DNA of 64,000 nt from assembly GCF_003122365.1 (NCBI RefSeq), contig NZ_CP029254.1, positions 3,110,501-3,174,500 of the forward strand, given 5' to 3'. The position numbers and the translations under genes are program-made. This document shows positions 3,197 to 51,816 of the stretch, piece after piece (the stretch's first letter is position 1; every line of letters begins with the position of its first letter). Below the pieces are notes generated by a model, which was not told where the DNA came from, made no database searches, and worked only from the letters and a program-made list of their open reading frames with translations. The DNA comes from Streptomyces spongiicola (GTDB lineage: Bacteria > Actinomycetota > Actinomycetes > Streptomycetales > Streptomycetaceae).

Positions 3197-3199
3197 CGC

Positions 3200-3690
3200 C
3201 GCCGCGGGGACTCCCCGGCGCCCGCGCCGGGACAAGCCCGGCGTAGCGGACGGCGGTCCCGGGCGGCAGCGGCCGGCGCTCCCGGGCGGCACCCCCAGCT
3301 GCGCTCCCAGGCGGCAGCGGCCGGCGCCTCCCGGGCGGCACCCCCAGGACGGCGCTCCCCGGCTGCGCTCCCGGGACGGCGCTCCGGGGTTGCGCTCCCG
3401 GGACGGCCCAGATCTCCGGGCCGGGCCCGGGGAAGGCCCGGCCAGGAAGGAGCCGGTCGCGAGAACAGCCCGGATACGGGAGAGCCCGGCCCGGCACAAG
3501 CCCGGCTGCGAGAACAGTCCGGTCCGGAAAGGCCCGGTCCGGAAAGGCCTGGCTCGGAAAGGCCCGGCCCGGAAAGGCTTCCCCAGTCGAACCGGAGGCG
3601 CCCCGTCAGCCGAACCAGCGGGGCTCCACGGCCGAACCAGCCGGGCCCTCAGCCGAACCAGCCGGGCTCCACGGCCGGCCCAGCGGGGCC
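3200..3690. repeat. Intergenic GC-rich direct repeats
   Basis: The gap between two convergent genes holds three repeat families: CTCCCGGGCGGCA-type units (3240-3370), GGAAAGGCCCGGTCC-type units (3525-3580) and GCCGAACCAGC(C/G)GGGC-type units (3610-3700). The last family resembles the final codons of the minus-strand gene ending at 3692 (Trp-Phe-Asp-stop), as if that 3' end had been copied several times. No gene is seen. Confidence 0.55.
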
Positions 3691-3691
3691 C

Positions 3692-6979: not shown

Positions 6980-7936
6980 GCCTGTCTCCGCTCTCTGACT
7001 GTGCTCTTCGGCCGTCCCGGCATTCCGCCGGTACCGGTGCGGTACGACGGCGGTACCGATGCGGCACCGCACCGGTACCGGTCGTTGTCGCCGTCCCGGC
7101 CACGCGGACGCGGCCCCGCCCCGGAGCCCGAAGGTACCGCGTCGCACACGCCCCCGCGCGACCGCTCCACCGGGCTCGCACCGCACACCCGGGTGGCGTT
7201 GCGGTGCGACGGGGATTCCGGTGCCGAGGTCACTCCCGATGCGGTCGGTCCCGAGAGCGGTCCCCCGGCCCCGGCACGGCGGACCCGCCCCGGAGCCGGG
7301 CAGGGGCCGGGAACGCCCGGGGGAACGGCCGGGCAGGGGCCGGGAACGCCCGGGGGAACGGCCGGACAGGGGCCGGGGACGGCCCGAGGAACGGGCGGAC
7401 AGGGGCCGGGGACGGCCGGACCCTGAGCGAGGCCGGGCCGGGCTCGGCAGGGCCGGTCGGGGCCCGGCGAGCCGGACGTGCATGGCGCCGGCGCCGTGCC
7501 CCGGGGTCTGCTCGCCTCCGCCCTCGGCGTCAGCTCCGCCCTCGGCTGACCATCGCGTAACCGGCGCGCCCGCCTCGTCACCTGCGCGCTCGGCACCACG
7601 GGCACCGGCACCACCGGCACCACCGGCACCACCGGCACCACCGGCACCGAGCGCAACGACCGGCCGGGGCTCACCGCAGAGGTGATCGCGCACGCGCCGT
7701 ACACCCGGGACGCACCGCAGACCGGGGTGCCCTGCCGGCGCCCGCCGTCCCGCGCATCGGCCGCCGGGTCCCTCGGGCTGATCGCGGGGTCCCCACCCGA
7801 CCGCTACCGAGGGCCGGAGCCGAGCGGTGCCGGCTGTAGCGAGCCGGACGGGGACCGCGCGGATGTTCCGGACGGGGGTTCCGGCGCGAGAGTTCCCGAA
7901 CGGGGCTTCCCGCGCGAGAGTTCCCGGACTCGGGCC
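6980..7936. other. Long intergenic region with tandem repeats, no gene seen
   Basis: This 957-bp gap upstream of the sacsin-like gene contains GGTACCGGTGCGGTAC-like inverted and direct units (7030-7080), three to four copies of a GGGGCCGGGAACGCCCGGGGG-like unit of about 38 bp (7307-7420) and a clean 9-bp tandem array at 7607-7648. Frames through it are low-complexity. A promoter for the minus-strand gene must lie near 6980-7060 but I cannot place it. Confidence 0.5.
7601..7648. repeat. 9-bp tandem repeat (GGCACCACC)
   Basis: Four perfect GGCACCACC units at 7607-7642 are flanked on both sides by a partial GGCACC. The period of nine keeps reading frame, but no real gene crosses it. Confidence 0.85.
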
Positions 7937-35545: not shown

Positions 35546-36043
35546 TCACGAGACACTAGAGATCAGATTCGTATCGAGTTCTCCATTGACCCATCGGAGC
35601 AAGAACTCAGTGCTCGACAAATCGAAGAATTCCCAGTCTCCGTCATAATCTTGGACCGCAATTCGCCGACCGGCCGGAAAGGAGCCCTCCTTAGGCACCA
35701 CCCAGTAGATGTACTCACCGTCACCGGTGCTTGCCCAGGCAATCAGCCTGTCACTCTCTCGATTAATCTCCGGAGGGACCTCTTCCCCAGCGCCCCAGAG
35801 AAGCTCCAGTGCCGTTTCCCGCTCAACCGCCCAGGACGCAAGATCGTAAGGCTCTCCTTGCTTTCGGGGTGAGTGAATCCAGATATGCCGGTCGAAACTC
35901 CCACCTCCGAACGTATCGATCATTTCTCGATAATCATCCGGAAGGAGAGTCCGAAGCTCTACAGGGACGCCGCTCCAGTCCACCTCACCCGGAGCCTGCG
36001 GGTACGAGACGTTCGCCCATCGCGCCAACTCTGCTACAGACAC
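35546..36043 (-). CDS. SMI1/KNR4 (SUKH) family immunity protein
   Basis: A 165-residue protein with the SUKH-fold signature: VPVELRTLLPDDYREMIDTF then GGGSFDRHIWIHSP, followed by ELLWGAGEEVPPEINRESDR, AWASTGDGEYIYWVV and WEFFDLSSTEFLLRWVNGEL. SUKH proteins are common immunity factors of polymorphic toxins, especially nuclease tips. The GTG at 36041-36043 has AGGTGA upstream; the longer frame to 36199 overlaps the toxin antisense-free region and is unlikely. It lies seven bases after the end of the endonuclease tip at 36051. Confidence 0.85.
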   Translation of the reverse strand: MSVAELARWANVSYPQAPGEVDWSGVPVELRTLLPDDYREMIDTFGGGSFDRHIWIHSPRKQGEPYDLASWAVERETALELLWGAGEEVPPEINRESDRLIAWASTGDGEYIYWVVPKEGSFPAGRRIAVQDYDGDWEFFDLSSTEFLLRWVNGELDTNLISSVS

Positions 36044-36050
36044 TTCGGGG

Positions 36051-36390
36051 TCACCTTTCCCTGTTGACGATCGTGACATCCAGAGAGAATCCTGCGTTTC
36101 CACGCCCAGAAAGCGTAACCCCCAAGGGAAGCGGATTACTTCCAGAGTAGATCGGCGTCGCCCTGTACAAAATATTCTCACCGGCTTTGACGGCATCACG
36201 AACCCGTAGCTCGAACCCTCGCATCACGGGAGAATTCGCATACGCGTGCATCGTGACGAAGTTTCTCTTGTCATTGTTCGCCCCTCCCAGCACTGCCGCC
36301 AACAGGTGCGCGCGATTGTACCCCTGTCCGCTCTGCCAACCGGCCGGGTCAACCGAAGGAGGGTGCGGATCCTTTCCGGGGGCAGCTGAG
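36051..36390 (-). pseudogene. DNA/RNA non-specific endonuclease tip, split by ISKra4
   Basis: The frame reads PPSVDPAGWQSGQGYNRAHL, LAAVLGGANNDKRNFVTMHA, NSPVMRGFELRVRDAVKAGE and ends GNAGFSLDVTIVNRER. The Arg-x-His-Leu and the downstream Asn match the active site of the DNA/RNA non-specific endonuclease family (Endonuclea_NS_2 type). Upstream of about 36390 the sequence changes to an ISKra4 element. The beginning of the tip (LAGETPVLVHNTGG then SGHICDI) reappears at 37735-37790 beyond the element. One tip coding sequence was therefore interrupted by the insertion. Its SUKH immunity gene remains intact. Confidence 0.75.
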
Positions 36391-36463
36391 CTGGTGTTTC
36401 GCTGATTCGGGTGTGGGCGGGAGGATGCCGTCTCTACCGTGCGGGTAGAGGAGGCGGTGCCGG

Positions 36464-36973
36464 ATGGGCTCGTTGATAGGGGAACTCGAGGAACGACGGG
36501 CTGCGGTGCAGGCCCGGGTGGACGAACTCGAAAGACGGATTGTCGTGTTGACAGGCCGTCTGGAGGCTGAGCGGTCCCGGCTGGAGCGGTTGACGGTGAC
36601 ACGCGAGACGCTGGACGAGCTCGCGGCCGAGGGGGTGGACGTCGACTCGGTCGCGGGGGCCCCGGCCGCGCGGGAGCCGGTGAACGTGGGCCAGGTCGTG
36701 GGGGTTCAGACGGTGATGCCCTGGCGGGAGGGCATGACCAGTACCGATCTCCCACCCGTGTGCCGGGACATCGTGGACGTGGTCGACGACGCGCCCGGTC
36801 CGGTGCAGGCCAAGCAGGTCGTACCGAGGATCGGTCTGCCCCCGCGGACCTCGAAGATCGAGACGACGCGGTCGAAGATGAAACGGCTGGTCGAACGGGG
36901 GTGGCTGGACGAGGACGCTCCCGGTCTGTTCGCTCCGTCCGCCCGCGGAGCACCGGCCGGCCCGGCGCGGTGA
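36464..36973 (+). CDS. ISKra4-associated accessory protein
   Basis: A 169-residue protein. Residues 1-50 form a coiled coil (LIGELEERRAAVQARVDELE, RRIVVLTGRLEAERSRLERL). Residues 95-155 look like a winged-helix domain (VCRDIVDVVDDAPGPVQAKQ, SKIETTRSKMKRLVERGWLD). I know this protein as a common partner just upstream of ISKra4-type transposases in Streptomyces. Its function in transposition is not established. Confidence 0.7.
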   Translation: MGSLIGELEERRAAVQARVDELERRIVVLTGRLEAERSRLERLTVTRETLDELAAEGVDVDSVAGAPAAREPVNVGQVVGVQTVMPWREGMTSTDLPPVCRDIVDVVDDAPGPVQAKQVVPRIGLPPRTSKIETTRSKMKRLVERGWLDEDAPGLFAPSARGAPAGPAR

Positions 36974-38408: not shown

Positions 38409-38468
38409 GGCACGGGCTTCGTGATCATTGGGGTGTCGAAGCTCAACGATCACGAGGTGGCCCGTGCC
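38409..38468 (+). promoter_or_regulatory. Inverted repeat over the transposase start
   Basis: GGCACGGGC (38409-38417) pairs with GCCCGTGCC (38460-38468), and CGTGATC pairs with GATCACG inside it. The right arm covers the GTG start at 38464 and abuts its ribosome-binding site GAGGTGG. A transcript entering from outside the element would hide the start in a hairpin, a common way for insertion sequences to limit expression. Confidence 0.55.
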
Positions 38469-39675
38469 TGCCGCTGTATCCTCTCTCATCCCGCCGGTGT
38501 TGGTGAGGCTGGGTCCGCTGGACCTCGGCCAAGTCGCTGACCTGCGGCCTTTCCTGGAGTTGGTGCCCGACCCGCGTGCGAGGCGGGGCCGCTGGTACTC
38601 GCTGACCGCGATCCTCCTCGTCTGTGCCTGCGCGGCCGTGTCGGGAGCGAGGAGCGTCGACGAGATCGCCGAGTGGGCGGCGCGTGCCTCGGACACCGTG
38701 CTGACGGCCGTCGGCGTCCGACGGCATCCGCTGCGGTGGCGCCGTTCTCCCTCGCGGACCACGATCGGCCGTGTGCTGGCGGCCGTCGACGGTGACGCCC
38801 TGGACCGGGCCGTCGGCGCCTACCTCGCCGACCGGAACCCTGCGGGAACGGCTTCCGGGCTACGGCAGGTGATCGCCGTCGACGGCAAGTCGCTGAGAGG
38901 ATCGGCCCGCCCGTCCACCGGCCGCAGGCACCTGCTCTCCGCCGTCACCCACCACCGGGCCCTGACCCTCGCCCAGGCGGAAGTCGGAGCCAAGACGAAC
39001 GAGACCGCGCACTTCCGTCCCCTGCTCGAACCGCTGGGCCTGGACGGAACTCTCGTCACCTTCGACGCCCTGCACTCGGTCCAGGCGAACGCCACCTGGC
39101 TGGTCGAGACCAAGAACGCCCACTACATCGCCGTGATCAAGCGCAACCAGCCGACCGCCTACAGGCAGCTCGCCGCCCTGCCCTGGCCCAACGTCGCCGT
39201 CCAGCACACCGCCTCCTCCACCGGCCACGGCCGCCACGAATCCCGCTCCATCAAGACCTGCGGCATCGCCGACGAACTCGGCGGAATCGCCTTCCCTCAC
39301 GCCCGCCTCGCCCTCCGCGTCCACCGACGCCGCCGGCAAACCGGCCGACGCGAAACCCGCGAGACGGTCTACGCCGTCACCAGCCTCGACGCCCACCAGG
39401 CCACCCCGGCCGAACTCGCCGCCGCCATCCGCGGCCACTGGAGCATCGAAGCCCTGCACCACGTCAGAGACGTGACCTACGCCGAGGACGCCTCCACCCT
39501 CCACACCGGCACCGCACCACGCGCCATGGCCACCTTCCGCAACCTCGCCATCGGCCTGCTCAAAACCCTCGGAGCCACCAACATCGCCAAGACCACCCGC
39601 GCAATCCGCGACCAGCCCGAACGAGCCCTCCCACTCCTGGGCACCACCAACAACCCCGACACTCGCGGAACTTAA
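38464..39675 (+). CDS. ISAs1-family transposase
   Basis: A 403-residue DDE transposase. The N-terminal [20 protein letters not shown] and [20 protein letters not shown] are family-typical. Catalytic regions are [16 protein letters not shown] (Asp), [16 protein letters not shown] (Asp) and [20 protein letters not shown] (Glu). The frame is intact, ending shortly before the right inverted repeat. The GTG at 38464 is preferred for its ribosome-binding site; the frame opens at 38428. Confidence 0.9.
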
Positions 39676-39685
39676 TCAAGCCCTG

Positions 39686-40373
39686 CCCGGGGCCCGCACG
39701 TGCCGCAGCAGGGTGTTGAACATGCGGGTGTCGACGTGAAGTACCCGTTCTGATGTGCCCTTTGGGCGGCGGCCGGGATGAGGGTGCCGATCCCCGCTCC
39801 GTTGTAGCCCTTGTCCGCAAGGGTCGGCAGGCCGTCGGTCGCCGCCTTGTGCAGGGCGGGCAGGGTGTGGATGCGGGCGGCCGTGATGTCGGGCGTGGAG
39901 CCGGGTTCGACGTCGGAGACCCGCAGTGGGGTGCCGTCTGGGGCGGCCAGAAACCGGATGTTGCCGCCGAACGCCTCGTGCTTCTGGCTGAACCACCAGT
40001 CGTTGCCGTTGTCCCGGACGCCGGCGAGGCGGTCCGATTCGATCAGCGTGCCGTCGAGGGTCACGTGCGTCACGCCTTCGCGCTGACAACGGCTCAGGAC
40101 TTCGTGCAGGTCGGGTGCCTTCTCGGCGAGGACGTCGATGCCCTCGTGGAGGTAGGGGTAGCCGGTGGCCTGTGAGGCGCCCGCGTCGCGGGCCGGGCAG
40201 TGCACGCAGCCACGCTCGCGGAACCGGCGCAGCACCAGCACCGCCTGCCGGAACGGGCCCAGCGCGCGCGAGCCCTTCGGGGTACCGATCCGCCTGCGGT
40301 GAGCGGCGAGCAGCCGGGCGAGGAACTCGACGACATGGCGCGGGACGTCGAGCGTGGCAACATAGGTGACCAA
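39686..40373 (-). pseudogene. IS5-like transposase, frameshifted and truncated
   Basis: Related to the transposase at 32574. VTYVATLDVPRHVVEFLARL, LHEGIDVLAEKAPDLHEVLS, VTLDGTLIESDRLAG (first Asp) and LPTLADKGYNGAG (second Asp) are recognisable. Near 39740 the frame shifts, and DTRMFNTLLRHVRAPG continues in another frame until the ISAs1 end at 39685 cuts it off. The Glu-containing C-terminus is missing. Upstream, three GATCGGACCC units (about 40465-40494) and a segment like the leader of the intact IS5-like copy (GTGAAGCCCCTGGTNGGNA) extend to about 40530. Confidence 0.8.
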
Positions 40374-40543
40374 CGTGAAGCCTCTGGTTCCACGGACGTT
40401 CTTGTGAGAGAGACCTGTCCCACCAGGGGCTTCACGCCTGTCCGCCGCCAGGACCCGCATGCCCGATCGGACCCGATCGGACCCGATCGGCACGGTTCAG
40501 CCCTCTTCGCGAAGATCATTTCGCTGAGAAAACCTCACTGGCT

Positions 40544-40594
40544 GCGGGCGACGACTCCGAGGAGCCGCCGCCCGCAGCGGTAGGTATCCGTTGA
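40544..40594 (+). pseudogene. Tyrosine integrase tail e (last 16 codons)
   Basis: The frame reads AGDDSEEPPPAAVGIR-stop (TGA at 40592-40594), matching the tails of copies b (GQDDDPGDPPVAVVVR) and d. It is followed by GTTGCCGTT and GTTGCCGTC (40596-40610), as after copies a and b. The rest of the gene was replaced by the IS block. It shows that the active Rhs tip/immunity pair is also bordered by an integrase end. Confidence 0.7.
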
Positions 40595-40608
40595 CGTTGC
40601 CGTTGCCG

Positions 40609-41028
40609 TCAAGCGCCCCGTGAGGGGCCGTCGGAGCTGGAGGAGTAACGCCTCACATCGATCTCATTGCGAAGCTCCTCCAGCTCCTCTTCGTTTGGCT
40701 CGAACGGCGCAGAGCAGGTCTTCAAGACCTCAATCTTCTGACTGACTCCCCACTCATCCCATACTTCCAACGATGAGGCGTACCGAGCGATCACGCCCCT
40801 CTCGTACTCTCTCGTAGACCACTTTCGCCAGGACTCCCAGCGCGCCACCCGACGCGAATCCCCGATTCGCGCACTTTCCAAGATGATCGAATCGACAATT
40901 CGGCGATGTGTTGCCGCAAGTCTGGGGCTACCGAAATACGGTTCGGGAGGTTCCTCATCTTCGAACTTCAAGCGCACCAACGCTGAAGCCAGCGTCTCCA
41001 GCTCCTCAAGAGCCAGCTCTACCTGCAT
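40609..41028 (-). CDS. Probable immunity protein of the Rhs tip
   Basis: A 139-residue acidic, helical protein (LALEELETLASALVRLKFED, AATHRRIVDSIILESARIGD, PNEEELEELRNEIDVRRYSS). It starts nine bases after the stop of the 3549-residue Rhs gene with a strong ribosome-binding site (AGGAGAGG), so the two are one transcript. Position, size and acidity are those of an immunity factor for the tip. I do not recognise the family. The base composition is AT-rich like the tip itself. The gene's last codons form a small hairpin (GCCCC-GTGA-GGGGC, 40615-40628). Confidence 0.65.
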   Translation of the reverse strand: MQVELALEELETLASALVRLKFEDEEPPEPYFGSPRLAATHRRIVDSIILESARIGDSRRVARWESWRKWSTREYERGVIARYASSLEVWDEWGVSQKIEVLKTCSAPFEPNEEELEELRNEIDVRRYSSSSDGPSRGA

Positions 41029-41037
41029 AAACCTCTC

Positions 41038-44000
41038 CTAGCCAAACGGGTTCGGGCCGGCGTACAACACGTCGGATCGGTCAAACCGCAACGACCCTTG
41101 ATGTATCAGCTCGTTAGGCTGCTCTCCCACTCGGAGAGACACACCCTCCCGCCTTCGAATCGCGATCATGAAGCCACCCTTGCCTGCATAGGCAGGGTTA
41201 CCGGCGAAGAGAACGTTGTGTATATCACTAGGCGACACCATCTCCTGGGTGACGTACGCACGCCCCTTTGAGTCCGCTCGAATCGTCCCAGATCCGAAGA
41301 TCCCCTCGTACCCCTTCTGGTCCGAGTAATGGAAGATCACGTCATCATCGAGATTCTTCATGAGGTTATCGACGGACCCAGCGGTCGGACACCCGCCGGA
41401 ATTGTGAACGAGGACCGGCGTCTCGCCCGCCAGCACATGGTACGTGTGCAGGCCCTCGATGCTCAGGTCGTACGTCACGCGCTGGGCCGTGTACGACTTG
41501 ACCTCGACGATCGCGGTCAGGGCCCCGTCGCCGTTCTGAAGCCGCTGTCCGGGCTTGAGGTCGCCGGCCTGCGTCCAGGAGTTCCGGGTCGCCTCGTAGA
41601 ACTGGTGGTGCTTGGTGGTCTGGATCGTCTTCGGACCGGCCTTCGTGGCGACGACGACGTCGACGTAGTCACGGTCGGTCTTGGTGACGATCACCGCCTT
41701 GACGCGGTGCTTCTCCTTCTTCTTCTTGCCGGGCTCTGCCGTCAGGACGTAATCCCCGACCTTGACCTCGGAGATCGGCTTGGTCATGCCGTTCGCCATC
41801 AGCACACCGGTCAGACCGGTGAAGCTGTGCGGCGTGCACCCCTTGCGGCCGAGCTTGCTCGCCGCCGCGCCGAACACGCCGCCCGCGGCCGCGCCGATGG
41901 CCGTGGCCTTGGCCGCGCCGCTGACGCTGCAGCCCTCCTCGCTGGCCGCGCAGGAGGTGCCGTAGCCGACCGCGCCTTCCGCCGCGCCGCCCGCGGCGCC
42001 CGCGGCCGCGCCCTGCGCGACCTTGCCGCCGACACCGGCCATCAGACGGCCCACCGCGCTCGCGGCCAGGCCACCGGCCGCACCGCCGAGGGCGCCCGTG
42101 GCGCCGCCGATGGCGACCGCGCCGAGGAAGCCGCCGACCGACTTGGAGCCGTCGCTCATCATGTAGCCCACGCCGTTGGCCGCCGCGCCCGCGAGGACCG
42201 CGCAGCCGAGGGCGCCCACACCGGCGGTGATCGCCGTACAGCCGGCGAAGACGGCTATGCCGACCGCGACCGACGCGAGGGTCGAGGCGTGTTGCTTGAC
42301 GAAGTTGGCTGTGGCTTTGGCCGCCTTCTTGACGGCTCTGCCGACCTTCTTGGCTGCCTTGACCACCTTCTTGGCTACGTGTTTGACCGCCTTGGCGACC
42401 TTGCGCACCTGCTTCTTGACGTGCTTGACGACCTTGTGGACGTGGCGCTTGACCCGCTTGTACGTGCGTTTGACGTATCTCTTGGCCTTCTTGACGCTGT
42501 CCTGCACGTACCGCACGGTCTTGCGCACCGTCCGGTAGGCTTTCCGGACCGCCTTCTTGACCGTGCGCTTGATCTTCTTCGCGGCCTTGCGGACGACCTT
42601 GGCGGCCTTCTTCACCACCTTCTTGGTCTTGTGGTAGGCCGACTTGACGGTCTTCTTGACCTTCTTGGTGACCTTCTTGACGGCCTTCTTGACGAAGTCG
42701 AACCAGTGACCGGTCGGGTCCACACCGGTCATCGGGTTCTGGTTGGCGTACGCGTAGCGGTTCGCGTTGACCGACTCCGGCAACGGGCTGTTGGCCACCG
42801 TGTCGCGGCTGTCGAACTGGCCGGTCTGCGGTGAGTACCAACGCGCGGCCATATTGACCTCGGCCGTCTCAGGGTCCGTCCAGCCGGACTGGTAGCCCAG
42901 CTGCCCGATCATCCCCTGCGACGCGGTGACCTTGCCGAACGGCGAGTACGTGGTCGAGCCGGTCAGCGCCTCACCGGAGGCGGTGAACTGCCCGATCACG
43001 TCCGTGTGCAGGTCCGTCAGAGCCAGCACGGCCGAGGTGCCCGTCTTCACCCCCAGCAGCGAGCCGTCGGCGTCCCGGCTGTAGGTGGAGACACCGTCCG
43101 AGGCCACGTCGTTCCCGGCGCCGCTGTACCTGAACGTGAACAGCTCCGCACCGGTCTCGTCCTCGGCGTTCAGCACCCGGTCCAGACCGTCGTACGTGTA
43201 CGTCCGCTCGCCCTCGCCGATCACCCGGTTGAAGGCGTCGGCCTTGACCGCCGTCGAGACACCGCCCTCGTCGGTGATCTGGCTCATCGTGCCGCGAGCC
43301 GTGTACAGGTACGTGTTGTGCCCGTCCGACGTGAGGCGGTTGCGGGCGTCGTAGGTGTACGTGTCGCCGCCCACGCGCGTCCGGTTGCCGGACGCGTCGT
43401 AGCCGTAGACCTCGGTCGCGGTCCCGTTGTCCCACGACGCCAGGCGGTTGGCCCGGTCGTATGTGTACGCGTTCGCCGACGCGCCCGCGACACCGGTCGT
43501 CGTCTTCGACGTCTCGTTGCCGTTGGCGTCCCAGGTGTAGTTGATCCTGGCGAGCACCGCGCCGGACGGCGAGGTGAGCTTGTCCTCGGTCAACTGCTCC
43601 AGGGCGTCGTACTGGAACGTCCGCTTGGACTTGCCGACGCCGCCGTAGTCGATCGACGTGACCTTGCTGTTGACGTCGTAGGCGTAGGTCAGGGTCGACC
43701 CGGTGACCCCGTCGTCGACCGTCTTCAGCCGGCCGGCGGTGTCGTACCCGTAGGCCGTCGTGCCGGAGGCGTCCGTCCGCGACGTCATCGACCCGTCGCC
43801 GTTCCAGGCGAAGGAGGAGGCACCGGACGGGCCCGACGTGGACAGCAGCAGTCCGCGGTCGTCGTAGGCGAAGGTGTTCTTCTCCTCACCCACCCCGGCC
43901 ACGGCCGTGATCCGGTCGTCGGAGTCGTAGTCGTAGGTGTGGTCGGCCGTGGCGACCTCCGCACCCGCGCCCACCTGACGGGTCAGCCGGCCCTTGACGT

Positions 44001-47000
44001 CGTACTCGTTGGTGATGACCGCGCCGCCCGGGGAGCGGGCCTCCTTGGGCCGTCCGCCCGCGTCGTACACCGTGGTGAACGTGCGGTCCGCCGGGTCCGG
44101 GTGGGCCGGCGTGGACGGTTCGACCAGCGATTCCGGAAGACCCCAGCTGTTGTAGGTCGTCACGAAGGGGTTGCCGCGGCCGTCGGTGAAGCGCGTGCGG
44201 TTGCCCGCCGCGTCGTAGCCGAAGGTCGTGGTGATCGACTCGGTCGCCGAGACCGGCTGCACCGCCCTGGTCACCAGGCCCGTCGGGTCCACCTCGAACG
44301 TGGTGGTGTGGCCGCGGAAGTCGGTCACCGACACCGGGTTGCCCGCACGGTCGTACCCGGCGCTCATGGTGCGCACCGTCGTGCCGGTCGCGTCCAGGTC
44401 ACTGGTGGAGACCAGCTGGCCGTAGCCGTCGTAGGTGTTCCTGGTGCCGGTGCCGTTCGGGTCCGTCGCCGTGAGGACCCGGCCGTCCATGTCGTAGGTG
44501 AACGTGGACTTCTGGCCGGCGCCGTCGGTGACCTCGACGGCCTCGCCGATCGCGTTGTACGCGTACGACTCCGTGACGCCGGTCGGGCTCACGGTCCGGG
44601 ACAGCTCGCCGCCCGGCGCGTCGTACTCGTTGATCGCCGTGAACGCCCGCTGCGTCGGCTGACGCACGACGTCCGTGCTGGTGACCGGACGGCCGAGGTA
44701 GTCGTAGGTGCTCTCCTGACGCGCACCGTTCGGCCGGGTCGCCGACAGCTGGTCGCCGTTGGTGTCGTACGTGTACGTCGTCGTGCCGCCGCCCGGCTCC
44801 GTGACCGAGGCCAGATCGCCGAGCTGCGTGTACGTGTACGTGGTGCGGTTGCCCAGCGGGTCGACCTCCGCCGTGACCTGGCCGAGCCTGTTGTACTCGT
44901 TCCAGGCCGTGGCCGTGATCGGCGTCGAGGAGCCGGGCGGTGTGTAGTTCGGCATCCTCGTCGAGGACTCCTGGCCCTCGGCGTCGTACGCCACGACCGT
45001 GACGTTGCCGAGCGGGTCGGAGACCTCCGTCGCCTCGCCGAAGGTGTTGTAGCCGGTCATCGAGACGGGACGGACGGCGACCGGGGTCCCGCCGTTCTGC
45101 TCCGCGTTGACGACGGGCTCGGTGACGGTGGTCTGCTGGGCGGCCTCGTCGTAACCGTAGTCCGTCGTGTTGCCGCCCGCGTCGGTCATCGACACCGGCA
45201 GGCCGCGCTGGTCCAGCTTCCAGGTGGTGGACCGGACCGAGCTGCCCGCGGCCGGCAGCGTGCCGCCGTGGACGGCCGAGACCTGCGAACCGGTGAGCGC
45301 CTCGCCGTAGACCTGGACGTCGTCGATGCCGCCCGGCCAGAACCCGGTGTACGAGCCCTGGTATCTGACGCGGCCGATCTGCAGGTCCCCGTTGGCCGAC
45401 CAGGGCGCCGAGACGTCGTCGGTGCCCTGGAGGGCGCCGTTGACGTACAGCGAGACCTTGGCCGTCGAGGCGTCGTAGACGGACGTCAGGTGGGTCCACT
45501 GGCCCACGACCGGGGCGGAGGTGGAGTACACCAGCTGCGTACCGAGCTGCCCCGAGGCGTCGTCGCTGGTCGGAATCCGGATGGCCCACTTGTTCGCCGA
45601 CTGGACGTAGCCCAGCAGGAATCCGGAGTGGTAGTCGCCGTCCTGTCCGACCGCCGTGTAGTTCGACGCGGTGGAGGTGAGCTTGACCCAGGTGGAGACC
45701 GTGAAGCTGCCGGACGTGTTGACGACCGGGCCGTCGGTGTGCGCCCACGAGTTGGCGTTGCCGTCGAGCCGCGCGCTGCCGCCCCGATCGGTGTCCCAGT
45801 GCATTCCGGTGCCGCGCGTACCGGTGTGGTTGGCGCCGGACGAGTCCGCGACCGAGGAGCCGGTCGTCTCGTCGAGCCTGTAGCGGGCCACCGGTGCCGT
45901 GGTGCCGTCGTGGACGGTGGTGCCCGTGACGTTGCCCAGGTTGTCGTACGTGCTGTCCGACGTGCTGATGTCACCGGTCGCCGGGTCGGTCTCCGTCTCC
46001 GTGACGACGTTGTCGTCCGGGTCGTAGGAGACCCTGGTGGTGCGGTTGGCCCCGGTCGGGTCGAGGACCGACCCGGTGGTGCGGTCGGCGGCGTCCACCT
46101 CGAAGGTGGTCACGGTCCGGCCGTCGTTGGAGACCTGCTTGACCAGGTTGCCGGCCAGGTCGTACTCGTTGGACTGCTCGACGAACTGCTTGCCGTTCGC
46201 CGGGTCCTTGCGGATCACGCTCGCCGACAGGCCGTCGTCGGTGTAGGTGTACTGCGTGACCCAGCCCATCGCGTCGGTGATCGACGCGAGGCGGCCCGCC
46301 GGGTCGTACGCCCGCGACTCCTGGACCAGGGTGGTCGGCGCCGACGGGTTGTTCGGGTCGCCGGTGTAGTCGAGGAGGCTGGTCGTCAGCGGCCGGCCCT
46401 CGGCGTCGAAGGTGTAGGTGTTGACGTTCCCCGCGGGATCGGTCTCCCTCACCTTGTTGCCGTAGACGTCGTACGCGAACGCGGTGGTGTCGCCGCCCGG
46501 GTCCGTCCGCGTCTCGACGCGGTTGTGGGCGTCGTACGTCAGCGTCGTCACCCGCGAGGCGTCGCCGCCGGTGAGGTCGTCGACGGTCTGCGAGGTGACG
46601 TTGCCGTCGGCGTCGAAGACCGTGGTGGTCCTCGCCCGGTGCACCGCTCCCGTGACGCGGTTGGTGACCGGGGGGCTGGTCTCGGTGGTGACCTGGTCGT
46701 TCTTGTCGTAGGCGAAGGAGGTGGACAGCCCGCCCGGGTGGGCGTCGGACGTCTCGGTCTGGCCGGTCTTCCGGCCGAGGTTGTCGTAGGCGAACGCCAC
46801 CGCGGCGCCGTTGGCGTCGATCACCTCGGCGAGATCGCCGTTGGCGAAGTAGACGTTCCTCGTCTTCCTGCCGCCCGGTGTCGTGACCGTGTCCACGAGT
46901 CCGGCCGGCGCCACGGCCGCGCCGCCCTCCGCCGCCGGGGTCGACGCGGTGGTGTACGTGGTGGTGGCCTTGCGGCCGTTGGGGTGGCCGGCCACCGGCG

Positions 47001-50000
47001 GGGTGGTCACCGACAGCAGGTTGCCGCCGGTGTCGTAGCCGTAGCCGGTCAGGTACGTGTTGTCGGTCGGCCCGGAGGAGCGCGCGTCGCGCTCGGTGAG
47101 CAGCAGGTCGTTGCGCGGGTCCATCGGCGGGAACGCCGTGGTCGCGTCCGGGTAGTACGTGTAGTACTCGGTGGCGCACCTGTCGGCCGCGGTGTCCTGG
47201 CAGTCGGTCTGCGAGACCGTGTTGCCGCGCACGTCGTGACCGGTGATGCTGCGGTTGCCGTTGGCGTCCGTCACGGTGTGCAGGAAGCCCGCCGTGTCGT
47301 AGCCGTACGTCGTCCGCTTGCCGTTGGTGTCGGTGGCGGCCAGCAGGCGGTTGCCCATCTCCGCGTCGTACACGTACTTCAGCGTCTTGTCGGTCGGGTC
47401 GGTCAGCGTGACCGTGCGCACGGGAGCCACACCGGAGGACGCCTTGTAGGCCGACCAGTGCTGCTCGACCTGGTCCTCGCTCAGCGGGTGGGCGTACGCC
47501 GCGACCTCGGCGATGGAGCCGTTGAAGAAGCTCACGTCACCGGGGGACTGGTACCAGTACTTGCCGAAGCCGGCGCCGATGAAGGTGCGCTTGTTGGACT
47601 GGTCCTTCGCGGCACCGGCGTAGTCGGCCTGCTTGACACCGTCCAGGTAGAGGGTCTGGGTGGTGCCGGAGGCCGAAAGGACCGCGTGGTGCCACTTGTT
47701 GTCGTTGACCGTGCCCGTGGACCCGAAGGCGGTGCTGCCGGATCCGGAGACGCTCCACCAGTGACCGTGCAGCTTTCCGTCGGCGCCCACGTAGAGCAGC
47801 GGGTTCCACGAGCCGCTCGGGGTCGCGCCGGTCGGCGGCTGCGACTGGTCGGAGAGGATCACCCCCGGGGAGGACGTCTTGAACCACAGCTCGACGGCGC
47901 GCTCTCCCGAGCCGTGCCACGGGTCGAACGGGATCTCCGCGTACGAGGACGTCCCGTTGAACTGGGCCGCCGTGGCGTCACCGGTGCCGAAGGGACCCGC
48001 CACACCCTGCGTGACGGTGTTGTAGGTGCCGAAGCCGGTGTGCAGTTCGTTGGCGGCCTGCGGTGCGCCGAGCGTGTCGTCGAGTCGCCAGTAGCCGGTC
48101 GGGGCGGAGCCCATCACGGCGGAGCGGTAGACCTGCGAGGAGCCGGTGACGACTGGCGGGTTGAGCTTCCAGGTGCCGCCGTCGCCGTCCGTGACCTGCT
48201 GGACGAGGTCGTCGGTGGTGCCGTAGACGACCGACGACCGGGTCTTGCCACCCGGCGTGGTGATCTCGTTCAGCAGGCCCGCGGCCCGCTTGGCGGCCTG
48301 GTACTGCGCGGTGATCACCGACGGGGCGAGCGGCTCGGAGTAGATCGCCACCTCGGCCATCTGGCCCTTGTAGTGCCCGAGTTCGTCGTTCGGGTTCATG
48401 GAGGGCCAGCCGTCGGTGTTCACACCGGCGCCGAGCGAGACGTAGGGCTGCTCCCAGTCGTTGATGGTTCCGCTGAGGGAGCCCTGGGAGACACCGTCGA
48501 GGTACAGGGTCTGGGTGTTGGCCGCACCGGTGAGGACGGCGTTGTGCCACTGGCCGTCGGTGACGGTGGCGGTCGACGTGATCGTGGTCATACAGCCGGG
48601 CGACATCGCGAGGCAGCCGCGCAGCTTGCCGTCCGTGCCGACGTAGACCGCGGGGGTGTTCTTCGTCGTGTTGGCGACCGGGTCGGAGTCGCTCAGCGGC
48701 TTGTCGCCGTAGTAGAAGAGGACACCACCCGCGGTGGTCGTCCTGAACCACAGCGACACCGACATGTACGAGGGCGTGGCACCGGGGGCGCTCGGCATCT
48801 CGACGTAGGAGGTGGTGCCGTTGAAGGTGGCCGTCTTCTGGGTGGAGCCGGCGAGCACGGACGAGCCGCCGAGGGTCACGTTGCGGTAGAGACCGTTGTA
48901 CCGGCCCTGGTTGGTGTCGACCGCGTCCTTGGCGGCCGTGCCGGAGGTCTCACCGAGCCGCCAGTACGCGTACGGGTCGGCGTCCAGCACCGTGGTGCGG
49001 TAGTGGTTGCCGGTGGTGTAGCCGTACGTGGTGCACCTGGTCCAGTCGGCGGGCGGGCAGACCTTGGTGAGCTGGTCGCCCGAGTAGCCGTAGCTCCAGG
49101 TCTGCGCGGTGCCCGCGTCGCCGGCCGTCGACGGGTCGGTGGCGACCGTCGCGACGTGCCAGGCGGTGGCGCCGGCCGGCTGGGACCAGGCGAGGGTCAG
49201 CGAACGCCTGGACGTGTCGTTGGTGATCTTCGTCAGTCGCTTGTTCGCGTCGTAGGCGAACGTCTCGGTGCGGCCGGCGAAGTCCTTGACGGTCGACAGC
49301 GCGTACGTCCCCGCCTTGGCGGTGGCCTGGACGAACCTGTACTCCGTGAAGTCCTTGTCCGTCAGCGCGTAGCCGCCGGTCACGGTCTGGAGGCGGGCGT
49401 AGCGGCCCAGCGGGGGCACGAAGGTGCCGTCGCCGTTGCGGCCGAAGGCGACCTGCTCACCACCCGGATAGGTGATGATCACGCTGGTGACCGTGCCCGC
49501 GGGGTCCTTGACCTCGGTGGCCTTCATGTCGACGACCGTGGACCAGCCGGCGCCGAAGGCTCCGTCGATGCGCGGGTCGAGGCTGTTGTACGAGCGGTCG
49601 ATCTCCAGCGAGGGGCCGACGACCTCCACCTCGGCGTCGGTGTCCTCGGTGGTGTAGTTGCCGTCGGACGGGTCGAACTCGTGGCCGTCGGTGTTCTGGG
49701 CCAGGCCGGAGGTGACCGGCGGCTGCGGCACGGCGGTGGTGAAGCGGCTGGAGTACGTCACTTCCTCGTAGCCGTCGCTCACCCCGACGTACCAGGCGTA
49801 GTTCCTGCTCCACTTCAGCTTGCCCGAGGGGATCTTCCAGCTGCCCTTGGACAGGTTGCCGGAGGTGGCGACGGGAGTGGTGGAGCCGGAGTCGGCGTCG
49901 TAGACCTCGAAGGTGTACGTCAGCGTCGCGTTGGGCCACTTGTCGGCGTCGCTCGCGTAGACGAGCAGCTCCGGCTGGAGGGTGTTGGCCTGGAAGTTCT

Positions 50001-51687
50001 CCGGCGGGTACTGGGCGTTGACCTGCGGCTTGGTGTTGGGCGCGTAGGTCAGCTCCAGGGACGGACGCCAGCCGGCGGTCGCGGAGTTGTCGGAGTGGAA
50101 CTTCTTCCAGTGCAGCCCGTCGCCGGTCGGCGCGGTGAGGGCGAGGCCGTGGTTGGAGCCGCCGGTCGCCACCCAGTCGAACCAGCCCGTGGACAGCGTC
50201 ACCGGCATCTTCACACCGACACCCGTACTGCCACCGGTGTTGGTGCAGGAGGATCCGGGCGCGACCGTCGCGGAGCCGATGGACGTGCTGTAGGCCGGGC
50301 CCGGGTAGCCGGTCACACCGGACGGGGTCCAGGACTGGGTCACCGGGTGGACGGAGAACGGGGTGGCGGTGCAGGTCGAGGACCACAGGGCCCAGACGTT
50401 CAGCTTGGCCGCGGAGACCTTCTGCCCGGCGAGCGTGGTGCTCAGCGAGGAGAACTGGAGGAACGAGTTCGCCTTGTTGGTGCCCGAGTCGTACGAGCCG
50501 ACCTTGATCTGGTTCTCGGTTGAGTGGTCACCGGGGATCGTGCTCTGGGTGTACGTCGAGTTGCTGGCGGTGATGGTGGGGTCGACGATGACCGGGTAGA
50601 CCCGGCTCGGGTCGTCCAGCCACTCCCGGTCGGCGGTCAGCCTCAGCGCGGGCCGACCGTCCACGGTGGTCAGCGCATAGGCGACGGCCCCGGAGCGGGC
50701 CGGGTCGCCGGAGCGCCGGTCGACGTCGGAGTCCTCCATGAACGCGTGCGGGATGGTGGCGGTCACCTCGCCGTCCGCGTCGGTGAACTCGACGTCGCCG
50801 TTGTCCGCGATGCGCGGCGTGAGGCCCGTGACGTCCAGCGGGAAGGTCCAGGAGTCGGCGGCGTCCCGGGAGTGCAGGACGATGTTCTCCTTGAAGCCCT
50901 CGGCGAGCGGCACGAGTTGCACGTCCGTGTCGGGCAGCACCCCGGCGTAGGTCACGGTGCCGTTGTCCGCCACGGAGGGCCGGACCTTCGCGGCGCCGCG
51001 CAGCGCGTACGCGAGGCTGCGGCCCTTGCCGAAGTCGATCGAGGCGAGCTGCTGGTCCGCGGCGTCGGCGGCGAACTCGATGCCGAGCGAGTTGGCGCGC
51101 TCCTGGAGCCTGCCTTCCTCGTTCTCGACCAGATCGGTGTCGATCGGCTCCCAACCGCCGTCAGCGCTGCGGAAGTTGGTGCGTCCGGCGTAGTGGCGGA
51201 CCGTGGTGGAACCGTCCGCGTTGACGTAGTAGTCCGAGGTCGCCGTGGACTTCCCGGCGTCGCGCTCGGAGGTGCCGGCGTCGAAGCTCTCCGCCGTGCC
51301 AGGGACCTTGCCGGTCGTGGCCGGCTCCACCTCGTCGACGGGCCGCTCGTACGGGTCGAGTTGGCCCTCGCCCTTCCCGGGCTCGCGACCGGCGTCGCCC
51401 TCCTCGCTGGTGGCCGCGGACGAGGCCGAGTGGCTCTTGCCCCGTGCGGTGCCGCCCTCCTGGTCGGGCGTGTCCAGCGGGGACCTGTTGGCCCACTCCC
51501 ACAGGCCGGACGTGGAGAACTCGGGCATGCTCAGCGCCGGCAGCGTGGCGCCGGTGGCCGCCGCCGTCTCGGTGGTGAGCATGAAAGAGAAGGAAACAAG
51601 AACGGATATGGCCGTTGCCCTCGTTCTGCGCCGGCCGGCAGGACCCGGCGGGAAGAGACGAGGGCTGCGGACCCAGCGAACGCGCAT
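41038..51687 (-). CDS. Giant secreted YD/Rhs polymorphic toxin with HINT and ART-like tip
   Basis: An intact 3549-residue protein. A signal peptide lies at residues 1-45 (twin Arg, then ISVLVSFSFMLTTETAAATG). A DNRLRE-type region lies near 365-530, and three LamG/concanavalin-like domains near 900-1130, 1185-1415 and 1930-2150. YD repeats fill about 680-900 and 1415-2900. The RHS core (NMAARWYSPQTGQFDSRDTV) lies near 2910-2990. A Lys/Arg-rich tract (2995-3130) and an Ala/Gly hydrophobic stretch (3130-3280) follow. The HINT domain runs 3284-3429, from Cys (CTPHSFTGLTGVLMANG) to VLVHN. The 120-residue tip (VIFHYSDQKGYEGIFGSGTI, HNVLFAGNPAYAGKGGFMIA) resembles HYD1-type ADP-ribosyltransferases. 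HINT self-cleavage would free the tip. The ATG at 51687 follows AAAAGG. Confidence 0.88.
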   Translation of the reverse strand: MRVRWVRSPRLFPPGPAGRRRTRATAISVLVSFSFMLTTETAAATGATLPALSMPEFSTSGLWEWANRSPLDTPDQEGGTARGKSHSASSAATSEEGDAGREPGKGEGQLDPYERPVDEVEPATTGKVPGTAESFDAGTSERDAGKSTATSDYYVNADGSTTVRHYAGRTNFRSADGGWEPIDTDLVENEEGRLQERANSLGIEFAADAADQQLASIDFGKGRSLAYALRGAAKVRPSVADNGTVTYAGVLPDTDVQLVPLAEGFKENIVLHSRDAADSWTFPLDVTGLTPRIADNGDVEFTDADGEVTATIPHAFMEDSDVDRRSGDPARSGAVAYALTTVDGRPALRLTADREWLDDPSRVYPVIVDPTITASNSTYTQSTIPGDHSTENQIKVGSYDSGTNKANSFLQFSSLSTTLAGQKVSAAKLNVWALWSSTCTATPFSVHPVTQSWTPSGVTGYPGPAYSTSIGSATVAPGSSCTNTGGSTGVGVKMPVTLSTGWFDWVATGGSNHGLALTAPTGDGLHWKKFHSDNSATAGWRPSLELTYAPNTKPQVNAQYPPENFQANTLQPELLVYASDADKWPNATLTYTFEVYDADSGSTTPVATSGNLSKGSWKIPSGKLKWSRNYAWYVGVSDGYEEVTYSSRFTTAVPQPPVTSGLAQNTDGHEFDPSDGNYTTEDTDAEVEVVGPSLEIDRSYNSLDPRIDGAFGAGWSTVVDMKATEVKDPAGTVTSVIITYPGGEQVAFGRNGDGTFVPPLGRYARLQTVTGGYALTDKDFTEYRFVQATAKAGTYALSTVKDFAGRTETFAYDANKRLTKITNDTSRRSLTLAWSQPAGATAWHVATVATDPSTAGDAGTAQTWSYGYSGDQLTKVCPPADWTRCTTYGYTTGNHYRTTVLDADPYAYWRLGETSGTAAKDAVDTNQGRYNGLYRNVTLGGSSVLAGSTQKTATFNGTTSYVEMPSAPGATPSYMSVSLWFRTTTAGGVLFYYGDKPLSDSDPVANTTKNTPAVYVGTDGKLRGCLAMSPGCMTTITSTATVTDGQWHNAVLTGAANTQTLYLDGVSQGSLSGTINDWEQPYVSLGAGVNTDGWPSMNPNDELGHYKGQMAEVAIYSEPLAPSVITAQYQAAKRAAGLLNEITTPGGKTRSSVVYGTTDDLVQQVTDGDGGTWKLNPPVVTGSSQVYRSAVMGSAPTGYWRLDDTLGAPQAANELHTGFGTYNTVTQGVAGPFGTGDATAAQFNGTSSYAEIPFDPWHGSGERAVELWFKTSSPGVILSDQSQPPTGATPSGSWNPLLYVGADGKLHGHWWSVSGSGSTAFGSTGTVNDNKWHHAVLSASGTTQTLYLDGVKQADYAGAAKDQSNKRTFIGAGFGKYWYQSPGDVSFFNGSIAEVAAYAHPLSEDQVEQHWSAYKASSGVAPVRTVTLTDPTDKTLKYVYDAEMGNRLLAATDTNGKRTTYGYDTAGFLHTVTDANGNRSITGHDVRGNTVSQTDCQDTAADRCATEYYTYYPDATTAFPPMDPRNDLLLTERDARSSGPTDNTYLTGYGYDTGGNLLSVTTPPVAGHPNGRKATTTYTTASTPAAEGGAAVAPAGLVDTVTTPGGRKTRNVYFANGDLAEVIDANGAAVAFAYDNLGRKTGQTETSDAHPGGLSTSFAYDKNDQVTTETSPPVTNRVTGAVHRARTTTVFDADGNVTSQTVDDLTGGDASRVTTLTYDAHNRVETRTDPGGDTTAFAYDVYGNKVRETDPAGNVNTYTFDAEGRPLTTSLLDYTGDPNNPSAPTTLVQESRAYDPAGRLASITDAMGWVTQYTYTDDGLSASVIRKDPANGKQFVEQSNEYDLAGNLVKQVSNDGRTVTTFEVDAADRTTGSVLDPTGANRTTRVSYDPDDNVVTETETDPATGDISTSDSTYDNLGNVTGTTVHDGTTAPVARYRLDETTGSSVADSSGANHTGTRGTGMHWDTDRGGSARLDGNANSWAHTDGPVVNTSGSFTVSTWVKLTSTASNYTAVGQDGDYHSGFLLGYVQSANKWAIRIPTSDDASGQLGTQLVYSTSAPVVGQWTHLTSVYDASTAKVSLYVNGALQGTDDVSAPWSANGDLQIGRVRYQGSYTGFWPGGIDDVQVYGEALTGSQVSAVHGGTLPAAGSSVRSTTWKLDQRGLPVSMTDAGGNTTDYGYDEAAQQTTVTEPVVNAEQNGGTPVAVRPVSMTGYNTFGEATEVSDPLGNVTVVAYDAEGQESSTRMPNYTPPGSSTPITATAWNEYNRLGQVTAEVDPLGNRTTYTYTQLGDLASVTEPGGGTTTYTYDTNGDQLSATRPNGARQESTYDYLGRPVTSTDVVRQPTQRAFTAINEYDAPGGELSRTVSPTGVTESYAYNAIGEAVEVTDGAGQKSTFTYDMDGRVLTATDPNGTGTRNTYDGYGQLVSTSDLDATGTTVRTMSAGYDRAGNPVSVTDFRGHTTTFEVDPTGLVTRAVQPVSATESITTTFGYDAAGNRTRFTDGRGNPFVTTYNSWGLPESLVEPSTPAHPDPADRTFTTVYDAGGRPKEARSPGGAVITNEYDVKGRLTRQVGAGAEVATADHTYDYDSDDRITAVAGVGEEKNTFAYDDRGLLLSTSGPSGASSFAWNGDGSMTSRTDASGTTAYGYDTAGRLKTVDDGVTGSTLTYAYDVNSKVTSIDYGGVGKSKRTFQYDALEQLTEDKLTSPSGAVLARINYTWDANGNETSKTTTGVAGASANAYTYDRANRLASWDNGTATEVYGYDASGNRTRVGGDTYTYDARNRLTSDGHNTYLYTARGTMSQITDEGGVSTAVKADAFNRVIGEGERTYTYDGLDRVLNAEDETGAELFTFRYSGAGNDVASDGVSTYSRDADGSLLGVKTGTSAVLALTDLHTDVIGQFTASGEALTGSTTYSPFGKVTASQGMIGQLGYQSGWTDPETAEVNMAARWYSPQTGQFDSRDTVANSPLPESVNANRYAYANQNPMTGVDPTGHWFDFVKKAVKKVTKKVKKTVKSAYHKTKKVVKKAAKVVRKAAKKIKRTVKKAVRKAYRTVRKTVRYVQDSVKKAKRYVKRTYKRVKRHVHKVVKHVKKQVRKVAKAVKHVAKKVVKAAKKVGRAVKKAAKATANFVKQHASTLASVAVGIAVFAGCTAITAGVGALGCAVLAGAAANGVGYMMSDGSKSVGGFLGAVAIGGATGALGGAAGGLAASAVGRLMAGVGGKVAQGAAAGAAGGAAEGAVGYGTSCAASEEGCSVSGAAKATAIGAAAGGVFGAAASKLGRKGCTPHSFTGLTGVLMANGMTKPISEVKVGDYVLTAEPGKKKKEKHRVKAVIVTKTDRDYVDVVVATKAGPKTIQTTKHHQFYEATRNSWTQAGDLKPGQRLQNGDGALTAIVEVKSYTAQRVTYDLSIEGLHTYHVLAGETPVLVHNSGGCPTAGSVDNLMKNLDDDVIFHYSDQKGYEGIFGSGTIRADSKGRAYVTQEMVSPSDIHNVLFAGNPAYAGKGGFMIAIRRREGVSLRVGEQPNELIHQGSLRFDRSDVLYAGPNPFG

Positions 51688-51816
51688 GGGCAGCCTTTTC
51701 TTAGACGAAGCCTACAAAAGCTCCGTGAGCCTGCCCCATCAGCGGACACCAGTTCTACTCAGGACCGGTGGCTTTGTTCGATCTTTACCATCCGCGGCGA
51801 ACGCGACGTTCGGCCC
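51688..51816. promoter_or_regulatory. Upstream region of the Rhs gene
   Basis: 129 bp between the Rhs start and the end of the next minus-strand gene. It is relatively AT-rich and must contain the Rhs promoter unless the gene is read through from the upstream pair. I cannot place -35/-10 elements with confidence. Confidence 0.35.

What the first reader, a model, noticed from the sequence alone, without database searches (positions are those of the whole stretch)
41038..41400. HYD1-like ADP-ribosyltransferase tip with an unrecognised immunity gene
The last 120 residues follow VLVHN and contain FHYSDQKGYEGIFGSGTI and LFAGNPAYAGKGGF, consistent with the Tox-ART-HYD1 group. The 139-residue acidic protein nine bases downstream matches no immunity family I know. 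It could define a new one.
Basis: partly seen in the sequence, partly recalled or inferred. Interest (0 to 1): 0.62.

Follow-up and report, generated by a model that had tools for sequence, protein, structure and literature searches.

The report
Tre23-type toxin tip with new immunity
A giant soil-bacterium surface toxin ends in a small enzyme related to one known to disable ribosomes, followed by a likely protective gene of an unnamed family, and sister copies carry an extra repair-type enzyme that hints at which chemical mark the toxin makes.

Summary
A 3549-aa Rhs/YD protein (41038-51687, minus) ends, after a pretoxin HINT domain and VLVHN, in a 120-residue tip; nine bases after its stop an acidic 139-aa gene begins. 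The tip's only significant solved relative is Tre23, the Photorhabdus Rhs toxin that ADP-ribosylates 23S rRNA (E 3.4e-10; profile 7.9e-16). It has no Pfam Tox-ART-HYD1 hit, while two canonical HYD1 tips from the same genus score 102-112 bits and carry a different neighbour (DUF6881). The 139-aa gene is under purifying selection (dN/dS 0.10), belongs to a family absent from Pfam, NCBIfam, PADLOC, PHROGs and the PDB, is predicted all-helical, and follows the tip in 8 of 8 tip-bearing genomes found. The tip is a swapped cassette: a relative's Rhs gene is 78-79% identical up to the HINT end, then has another tip. Unexpectedly, the window's three closest sister cassettes add a NADAR ADP-ribosylhydrolase gene. 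NADARs remove ADP-ribose from guanosine in RNA, and Tre23's linkage is reported as unidentified, so these cassettes predict guanine modification of rRNA, blocked by one protein and repaired by another. The window itself lacks the NADAR gene. Nothing was tested biochemically.

The parts
41038..51687 (-). 3549-aa Rhs/YD-repeat polymorphic toxin (DUF6531, RHS repeats, three Laminin_G_3 stretches, Rhs core, Lys-rich region, PT-HINT, tip)
   Evidence: N-terminal signal-like stretch and Lys-rich region by eye only
41398..41796 (-). pretoxin HINT domain, residues 3298-3430 of the protein, ending at VLVHN
   Evidence: PF07591 45.6 bits; TIGR01443 intein C-terminal motif, residues 3405-3430; coordinates computed by hand from the residue range
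41038..41400 (-). C-terminal toxin tip, Tre23-type ADP-ribosyltransferase relative (120 aa plus stop); H25, R48 and E98 in P0001 numbering
   Evidence: Tre23 chain 7pq5_L E 3.4e-10, profile 7.9e-16; H25 and E98 invariant in 8 of 8 tips; GC 0.58 / GC3 0.70 against 0.69 / 0.96 for the gene body
40609..41028 (-). 139-aa acidic gene of an unnamed, predicted all-helical family; proposed immunity gene
   Evidence: family member next to 8 of 8 tips; dN/dS 0.10; model pLDDT 87.7, seven helices; no family hit
40541..40578 (-). 17-bp stem-loop just after the immunity gene, a possible end of the two-gene unit
   Evidence: fold of 40500-40608: -56.4 kcal/mol, z -5.9, 0 of 200 shuffles as stable; stem coordinates; the consensus terminator scan found none here

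Best explanation
The Rhs protein is exported to the cell surface (inferred), its HINT domain releases the C-terminal tip (inferred from the domain), and the tip enters a competing bacterium and transfers ADP-ribose from NAD+ onto RNA, most likely ribosomal RNA as Tre23 does, stopping translation (inferred from homology). The 139-aa neighbour protects the producer, most likely by binding the tip and covering its active site (inferred). Tip and immunity gene travel as one cassette that is exchanged at the HINT/tip junction (shown by comparison with one relative). In the closest sister cassettes a third gene, a NADAR hydrolase, most likely removes the mark from already damaged ribosomes. This predicts that the acceptor is a guanine base (inferred).
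For: Homology to Tre23 over 101 residues with the His and Glu positions kept. Tre23 ADP-ribosylates helix 44 of 23S rRNA and is countered by Tri23 (PMC8636562, passages). HINT domain directly before the tip. G358 has the same Rhs gene at 78-79% DNA identity over 41423-51755, then a tip and neighbour that match none of the tip, immunity or NADAR profiles. Immunity family directly downstream in 8 of 8 tip loci, with purifying selection. Orphan immunity copies in two genomes without a tip hit, G247 and G065. NADAR directly downstream in G140, G332 and G820, and the only intact NADAR found in those three genomes. NADARs reverse guanosine ADP-ribosylation in RNA (PMC11833690, abstract and section 17). 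YarT, a Tre23-like HYD1 ART, is neutralised by its NADAR partner (PMC11125620, section 6).
Against: The tip model has mean pLDDT 57.8; Foldseek gives no PDB match at E<=0.001 (best 0.59), and the best structural Z, 4.8, is to an uncharacterised protein. The middle aromatic of the H-Y-E motif is not conserved (Y, H or F among the tips; A in Tre23). No NADAR lies in the window; the window's genome has one elsewhere; G832 and G041 have none. The three NADAR-bearing cassettes are close relatives and may be one event. NADARs also have a reported non-ADP-ribose role in riboflavin metabolism (PMC11543638, passages). Delivery and target cell are inferred.
Confidence: 0.7

Rival explanations
1. The tip is an ADP-ribosyltransferase-fold toxin with another target or chemistry, such as a protein or plain NAD+ consumption, and the NADAR in sister cassettes is there for another reason.
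For: Weak fold matches include TreTu/TreX Rhs toxins, Tpt1/KptA, PARPs, DarT1 and a guanine-specific ART at similar low scores. An ART-fold Rhs toxin with NAD(P) glycohydrolase activity is reported (PMC13285283, title and abstract start in search listings only).
Against: The only significant solved relative by sequence is Tre23. A NADAR directly follows the immunity gene in 3 of 8 tip loci.
Confidence: 0.22
2. The 139-aa gene is a cassette passenger that does not protect against the tip, and protection comes from the host's own NADAR or elsewhere.
For: No binding or rescue data. A NADAR exists elsewhere in the same genome.
Against: Present next to 8 of 8 tips, kept under purifying selection, and kept as orphan copies in two genomes, as immunity genes often are (general knowledge). 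E. coli YbiA and C7 NADAR did not rescue YarT (PMC11125620), so an unlinked NADAR need not protect.
Confidence: 0.08
3. A canonical Tox-ART-HYD1 toxin with its usual immunity partner, nothing new.
For: Shared FHYS...G motif; 4 of 8 tips hit PF15633 weakly. A review files Tre23 itself under PF15633 (PMC9990079, passages), and YarT, which resembles Tre23, clusters in the HYD1 subclade (PMC11125620).
Against: The hits with scores shown are below the cut-off and the window tip has none, while two canonical tips score 111.5 and 101.6 bits and carry DUF6881. The neighbour is modelled all-helical, unlike the alpha+beta Imm-My6CBD listed for HYD1 (PMC3482391, passages).
Confidence: 0.1

Closest known systems
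Tre23/Tri23 of Photorhabdus laumondii (Rhs1 C-terminal tip, PDB 7pq5)
   Same: Homologous tip over 101 residues, His and Glu positions kept, C-terminal end of an Rhs shell, immunity gene next door
   Different: Tre23 is T6SS-delivered with aspartyl autocleavage; this one sits behind a HINT domain in a Streptomyces-type bacterium. Whether Tri23 resembles the 139-aa protein was not tested (sequence not reached)
Tox-ART-HYD1 (PF15633) with DUF6881 or Imm-My6CBD neighbours
   Same: H-centred N-terminal motif and cassette layout
   Different: Window tip has no Pfam hit; best family score 18.9 bits against a cut-off of 25; neighbour matches neither by profile
YarT-YbiA toxin-antitoxin pair of myxobacteria (PMC11125620, section 6)
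   Same: A Tre23-like ART paired with a NADAR, as in the sister cassettes G140, G332, G820
   Different: YarT is a stand-alone toxin with NADAR as its antitoxin; here the toxin is the tip of an Rhs protein and the NADAR comes in addition to the immunity gene; the window has no NADAR gene beside it

Membership tests
Polymorphic toxin (Rhs/YD with C-terminal tip) | Rhs repeats and core plus pretoxin processing domain before a variable tip | tested here: met
   PF05593, TIGR03696, PF07591
Polymorphic toxin (Rhs/YD with C-terminal tip) | Tip and neighbour exchanged while the body stays | tested here: met
   G358 body 78-79% identical to window 41423-51755; its end and neighbour match no tip, immunity or NADAR profile
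Tre23-type ART | Sequence homology to the Tre23 catalytic domain | tested here: met
   E 3.4e-10 and 7.9e-16
Tre23-type ART | Catalytic-type His and Glu kept | tested here: met
   H25 and E98 invariant in 8 of 8 tips and aligned with H and E of Tre23; the role of that Glu in Tre23 is itself uncharacterised (PMC11125620)
Tre23-type ART | ADP-ribosylation of 23S rRNA | not testable with these tools
   needs biochemistry
Tre23-type ART | Immunity protein homologous to Tri23 | not tested
   Tri23 sequence was not reached; the primary paper is not held
Tox-ART-HYD1 (PF15633) | Score above Pfam gathering cut-off (25 bits) | tested here: not met
   No hit for the window tip at E<=1; positive controls 111.5 and 101.6 bits
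Tox-ART-HYD1 (PF15633) | H, [RK], [FY], [DE] signature (as tabulated in PMC3482391) | tested here: inconclusive
   H25, R48, E98 present; which aromatic is meant is unclear to me
ADP-ribosyltransferase fold | ART fold in a structure model | tested here: inconclusive
   pLDDT 57.8; no Foldseek match at E<=0.001; 43 of the 50 rows shown are ART-fold enzymes by title, but Z is 4.8 or less and the top two rows are an uncharacterised protein
Known immunity families (Pfam, NCBIfam, PADLOC, PHROGs) | Profile match | tested here: not met
   No hit for the 139-aa protein; the 10 family members give only three single-member Pfam hits, best 0.017, to unrelated families
Imm-My6CBD | alpha+beta fold | tested here: not met
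   Predicted model is all-helical, pLDDT 87.7, a prediction only; family description from a PMC3482391 passage
ART-NADAR module (YarT-YbiA, DarT1-NADAR) | NADAR gene beside the ART | tested here: not met
   Not in the window; present in 3 sister cassettes

The most novel reading that the evidence does not exclude
Tre23-type toxins mark a guanine base of 23S rRNA, and the cassette family to which the window belongs carries two layers of self-protection: a helical protein that blocks the toxin, and, in the sister cassettes, a NADAR hydrolase that repairs ribosomes already hit. This would be a reversible rRNA modification used as a weapon, with its own eraser encoded beside it.
Probability: 0.4. 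Interest if true: 0.75.

Novelty: new variant of a known kind. Interest (0 to 1): 0.52.

Why it matters
The chemical linkage that Tre23 makes on rRNA is stated to be unidentified in a 2025 paper (PMC11833690, passages). A hydrolase family with shown guanosine specificity on RNA, encoded beside Tre23-type tips, gives a direct prediction (guanine) and a ready tool to test it. It also places Tre23-type tips on HINT-bearing Rhs proteins of Streptomyces-type bacteria and adds an immunity family that the searched libraries lack.

Tried and rejected
Tip and immunity gene in mobile collections: no match for the tip in plasmids or phages, none for the immunity gene in plasmids, and none for either family in viral contigs. 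A phylum draw of 396 genomes with the 5-row tip profile found only the window genome, so spread outside the genus is unsupported here. A genome-contig scan with the immunity protein alone gave one relative.

Immunity fold: no Foldseek match at E<=0.001; best Z 5.5, to designed helical proteins, within the range the tool calls common for helical bundles. This does not show a new fold.

NADAR remnant in the window: none found by profile in stop-to-stop stretches of 25 aa or more. The window's genome holds one NADAR about 2.3 Mb away; I looked at its neighbouring frames only by eye and did not count it as part of the cassette. NADAR absence is not proven for G314 (only about 220 bases of contig follow the immunity gene), and G314 and G1016 were not searched genome-wide for NADAR.

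Three weak tip hits (G100, G179, G209, E 3e-4 to 9e-4) were dropped from the tip count because they cover only 25-48 of 122 positions. G179 and G209 are canonical HYD1 tips; G100 was read but not classified.

Two papers were opened without use for the argument's core: PMC13018210 (passages) and, beyond one caveat, PMC11543638 (passages).

My own notebook entry said that all fold matches were ART folds; that was too strong and is corrected here (43 of the 50 rows shown, by title).

Full report
What is there. The window lies in a 7.18-Mb, one-contig genome. A same-genus genome, G247, has a contig of the same length (7,861,428 bases) as the named record Streptomyces sp. MP131-18, so the window is of Streptomyces type. 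On the minus strand a 3549-aa frame runs from 51687 to 41038. Pfam and NCBIfam find DUF6531, RHS/YD repeats, three Laminin_G_3 stretches, the Rhs-associated core, and a pretoxin HINT domain at residues 3298-3430 that ends at VLVHN. The remaining 120 residues are the tip. Its stop codon is followed by nine bases and then by a 139-aa acidic gene with a GGAGAGG sequence before its ATG. A 17-bp stem-loop (40578-40541) follows that gene (z -5.9), so the unit may end there; a simple terminator scan did not call it.

What the tip is. Pfam, NCBIfam, PADLOC and PHROGs have no match for the window tip. Against solved structures its only significant match is the Tre23 chain 7pq5_L, E 3.4e-10 over 101 residues. 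A profile of eight tips gives 7.9e-16. H25 and E98 are invariant in 8 of 8 tips and align with H and E of Tre23. An aromatic at position 50 varies (Y, H or F; A in Tre23). Tre23 ADP-ribosylates helix 44 of 23S rRNA and blocks the GTPase-associated centre (PMC8636562, passages). The AlphaFold model of the tip is poor (pLDDT 57.8). Foldseek finds no PDB match at E<=0.001; its first two rows, E 0.59 and 1.3, are TreTu Rhs toxins. In the second look, 43 of the 50 rows shown are ADP-ribosyltransferase-fold enzymes by title (Tpt1, TreTu/TreX, PARPs, diphtheria and cholera toxins, DarT), but the top two rows are an uncharacterised protein and no Z exceeds 4.8. The fold is therefore supported by sequence more than by the model.

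Is it HYD1? Only 4 of 8 tips touch PF15633 at E<=1; the two whose scores I saw have 18.9 and 14.4 bits against a cut-off of 25, and the window tip has no hit. Two other tips from the same genus (G179, G209) act as positive controls: 111.5 and 101.6 bits, each followed by a DUF6881 gene. Profile comparison between the two groups aligns 21 columns around FHYS/LYHYT (probability 95.5). A review files Tre23 under PF15633 (PMC9990079, passages). I therefore call the tip a Tre23-type relative of the HYD1 group, outside the Pfam family as its cut-off defines it.

The neighbour. It has no match in Pfam, NCBIfam, PADLOC or PHROGs, and no significant one in the PDB. Ten intact members, the window's included, were aligned: eight beside a tip and two orphan (G247, G065). 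One further broken copy exists in G854. Among 391 genomes of the order, 5 carry a tip; among 392 of the genus, 9 have a hit and 6 of these are full-length. The two draws overlap; together they give 8 distinct genomes with a full tip, and 8 of 8 have the immunity gene directly downstream. Three of the eight (G820, G832, G1016) were first reached through the immunity gene and confirmed by the tip search. Against its 84%-identical relative the window gene shows dN/dS 0.10. The immunity protein diverges faster than the tip (window against its three sisters: 46-54% versus 70-73% identity; nonsynonymous differences also higher among G314, G1016 and G832). The model is confident (pLDDT 87.7), with seven helices and no strands. 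Structure searches gave no clear relative.

How the cassette moves. Tip and immunity gene have GC 0.58 and third-position GC 0.70 and 0.68, against 0.69 and 0.96 in the Rhs body; one Lys-rich stretch of the body also falls to GC 0.59, but its third-position GC stays at 0.94. In G358 the same Rhs gene aligns at 78-79% DNA identity over window 41423-51755, stopping 20 bases before the HINT/tip junction. Its end and neighbour match none of my tip, immunity or NADAR profiles. In Streptomyces sp. MP131-18 the alignment is limited to window 40595-41038, that is the immunity gene, the gap, the toxin's stop codon and 14 bases beyond the gene; this copy lies downstream of an Rhs gene with a different tip. 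Downstream of the window's cassette are two transposase genes, then a displaced nuclease tip with a SUKH-type gene.

The unexpected third gene. In G140, G332 and G820, whose tips are the three closest to the window's (72, 73 and 70% identity), the immunity gene is directly followed by a NADAR gene (PF08719, E 2e-50, 5.6e-52 and 2.7e-52): an 8-base gap in G140, touching or overlapping frames in G332 and G820. In these three genomes no other intact NADAR was found, only a broken second copy near the G140 cassette. G832 and G041 have none in the genome. The window has none beside it; its genome has one far away. G1016 shows none in the 1.2 kb available, and G314 is not informative because the contig ends. 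So 3 of 8 tip loci, or 3 of 7 informative ones, carry it. These three are related and may be one gain.

Why that matters. NADARs are the hydrolases shown to reverse guanosine ADP-ribosylation in RNA (PMC11833690, abstract and section 17), and bacterial NADARs showed no or negligible activity on uracil-linked ADP-ribose (PMC13036486, passages). The 2025 paper also states that the linkage made by Tre23 is not identified. A Tre23-like stand-alone toxin, YarT, is rescued by its own NADAR partner but not by two E. coli NADARs (PMC11125620, section 6). The sister cassettes therefore suggest that Tre23-type tips modify guanine, and that these producers both block the toxin and repair its damage. This is inference; nothing was measured. 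My searches of the held papers (Tre23/Tri23, 20 of 26 listed; NADAR with Rhs, 15 of 53; 23S rRNA/helix 44 combinations, 15 of 15; YarT/YbiA/NADAR, 15 of 23) listed no title or abstract start reporting this three-gene arrangement. Most subscription papers are not held, and I read only the parts named.

Verdict. The pair is a Tre23-type toxin cassette with an unnamed immunity family, a new variant of a known kind, and its sister loci raise a testable question about Tre23 chemistry.

Noticed in passing
window 35546-36953 (-): Displaced toxin cassette: a DNA/RNA non-specific endonuclease tip (PF13930, E 1.5e-13) followed by a SUKH-type gene (PF14568, 27.1 bits, cut-off 27) of GC 0.56; perhaps an older tip of the same Rhs gene.
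   Followed up: partly
window 38428-39675 (+) and 39672-40493 (-): Two transposase genes (PF13808 and PF01609; PF13359) lie between the immunity gene and the displaced cassette.
   Followed up: partly
L002 2498-6420: In Streptomyces sp. MP131-18 the orphan immunity homologue lies downstream of an Rhs gene with a different tip and other small frames; by eye, possibly an array of immunity genes.
   Followed up: partly
L031 6306-6713 (G065): An orphan homologue of the immunity gene with no tip found in the 13-kb region or in the genome.
   Followed up: no
L025 5099-5773 (G041): A second, displaced Rhs end downstream of a Tre23-type cassette, whose tip looks by eye like an R-S-E type ADP-ribosyltransferase.
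   Followed up: no
L039 and L040 1510-2134: Canonical Tox-ART-HYD1 tips each followed by a DUF6881 gene (PF21812), suggesting that DUF6881 is their immunity family.
   Followed up: partly
L023 3821-8347, L024 about 2252-7615, window 41038-51687: The same tip type sits on different Rhs chassis: a HINT-bearing 3.5-kaa protein in the window and roughly 1.5-1.8-kaa frames with a DPLGL-type junction (by eye) in G140 and G332.
   Followed up: no
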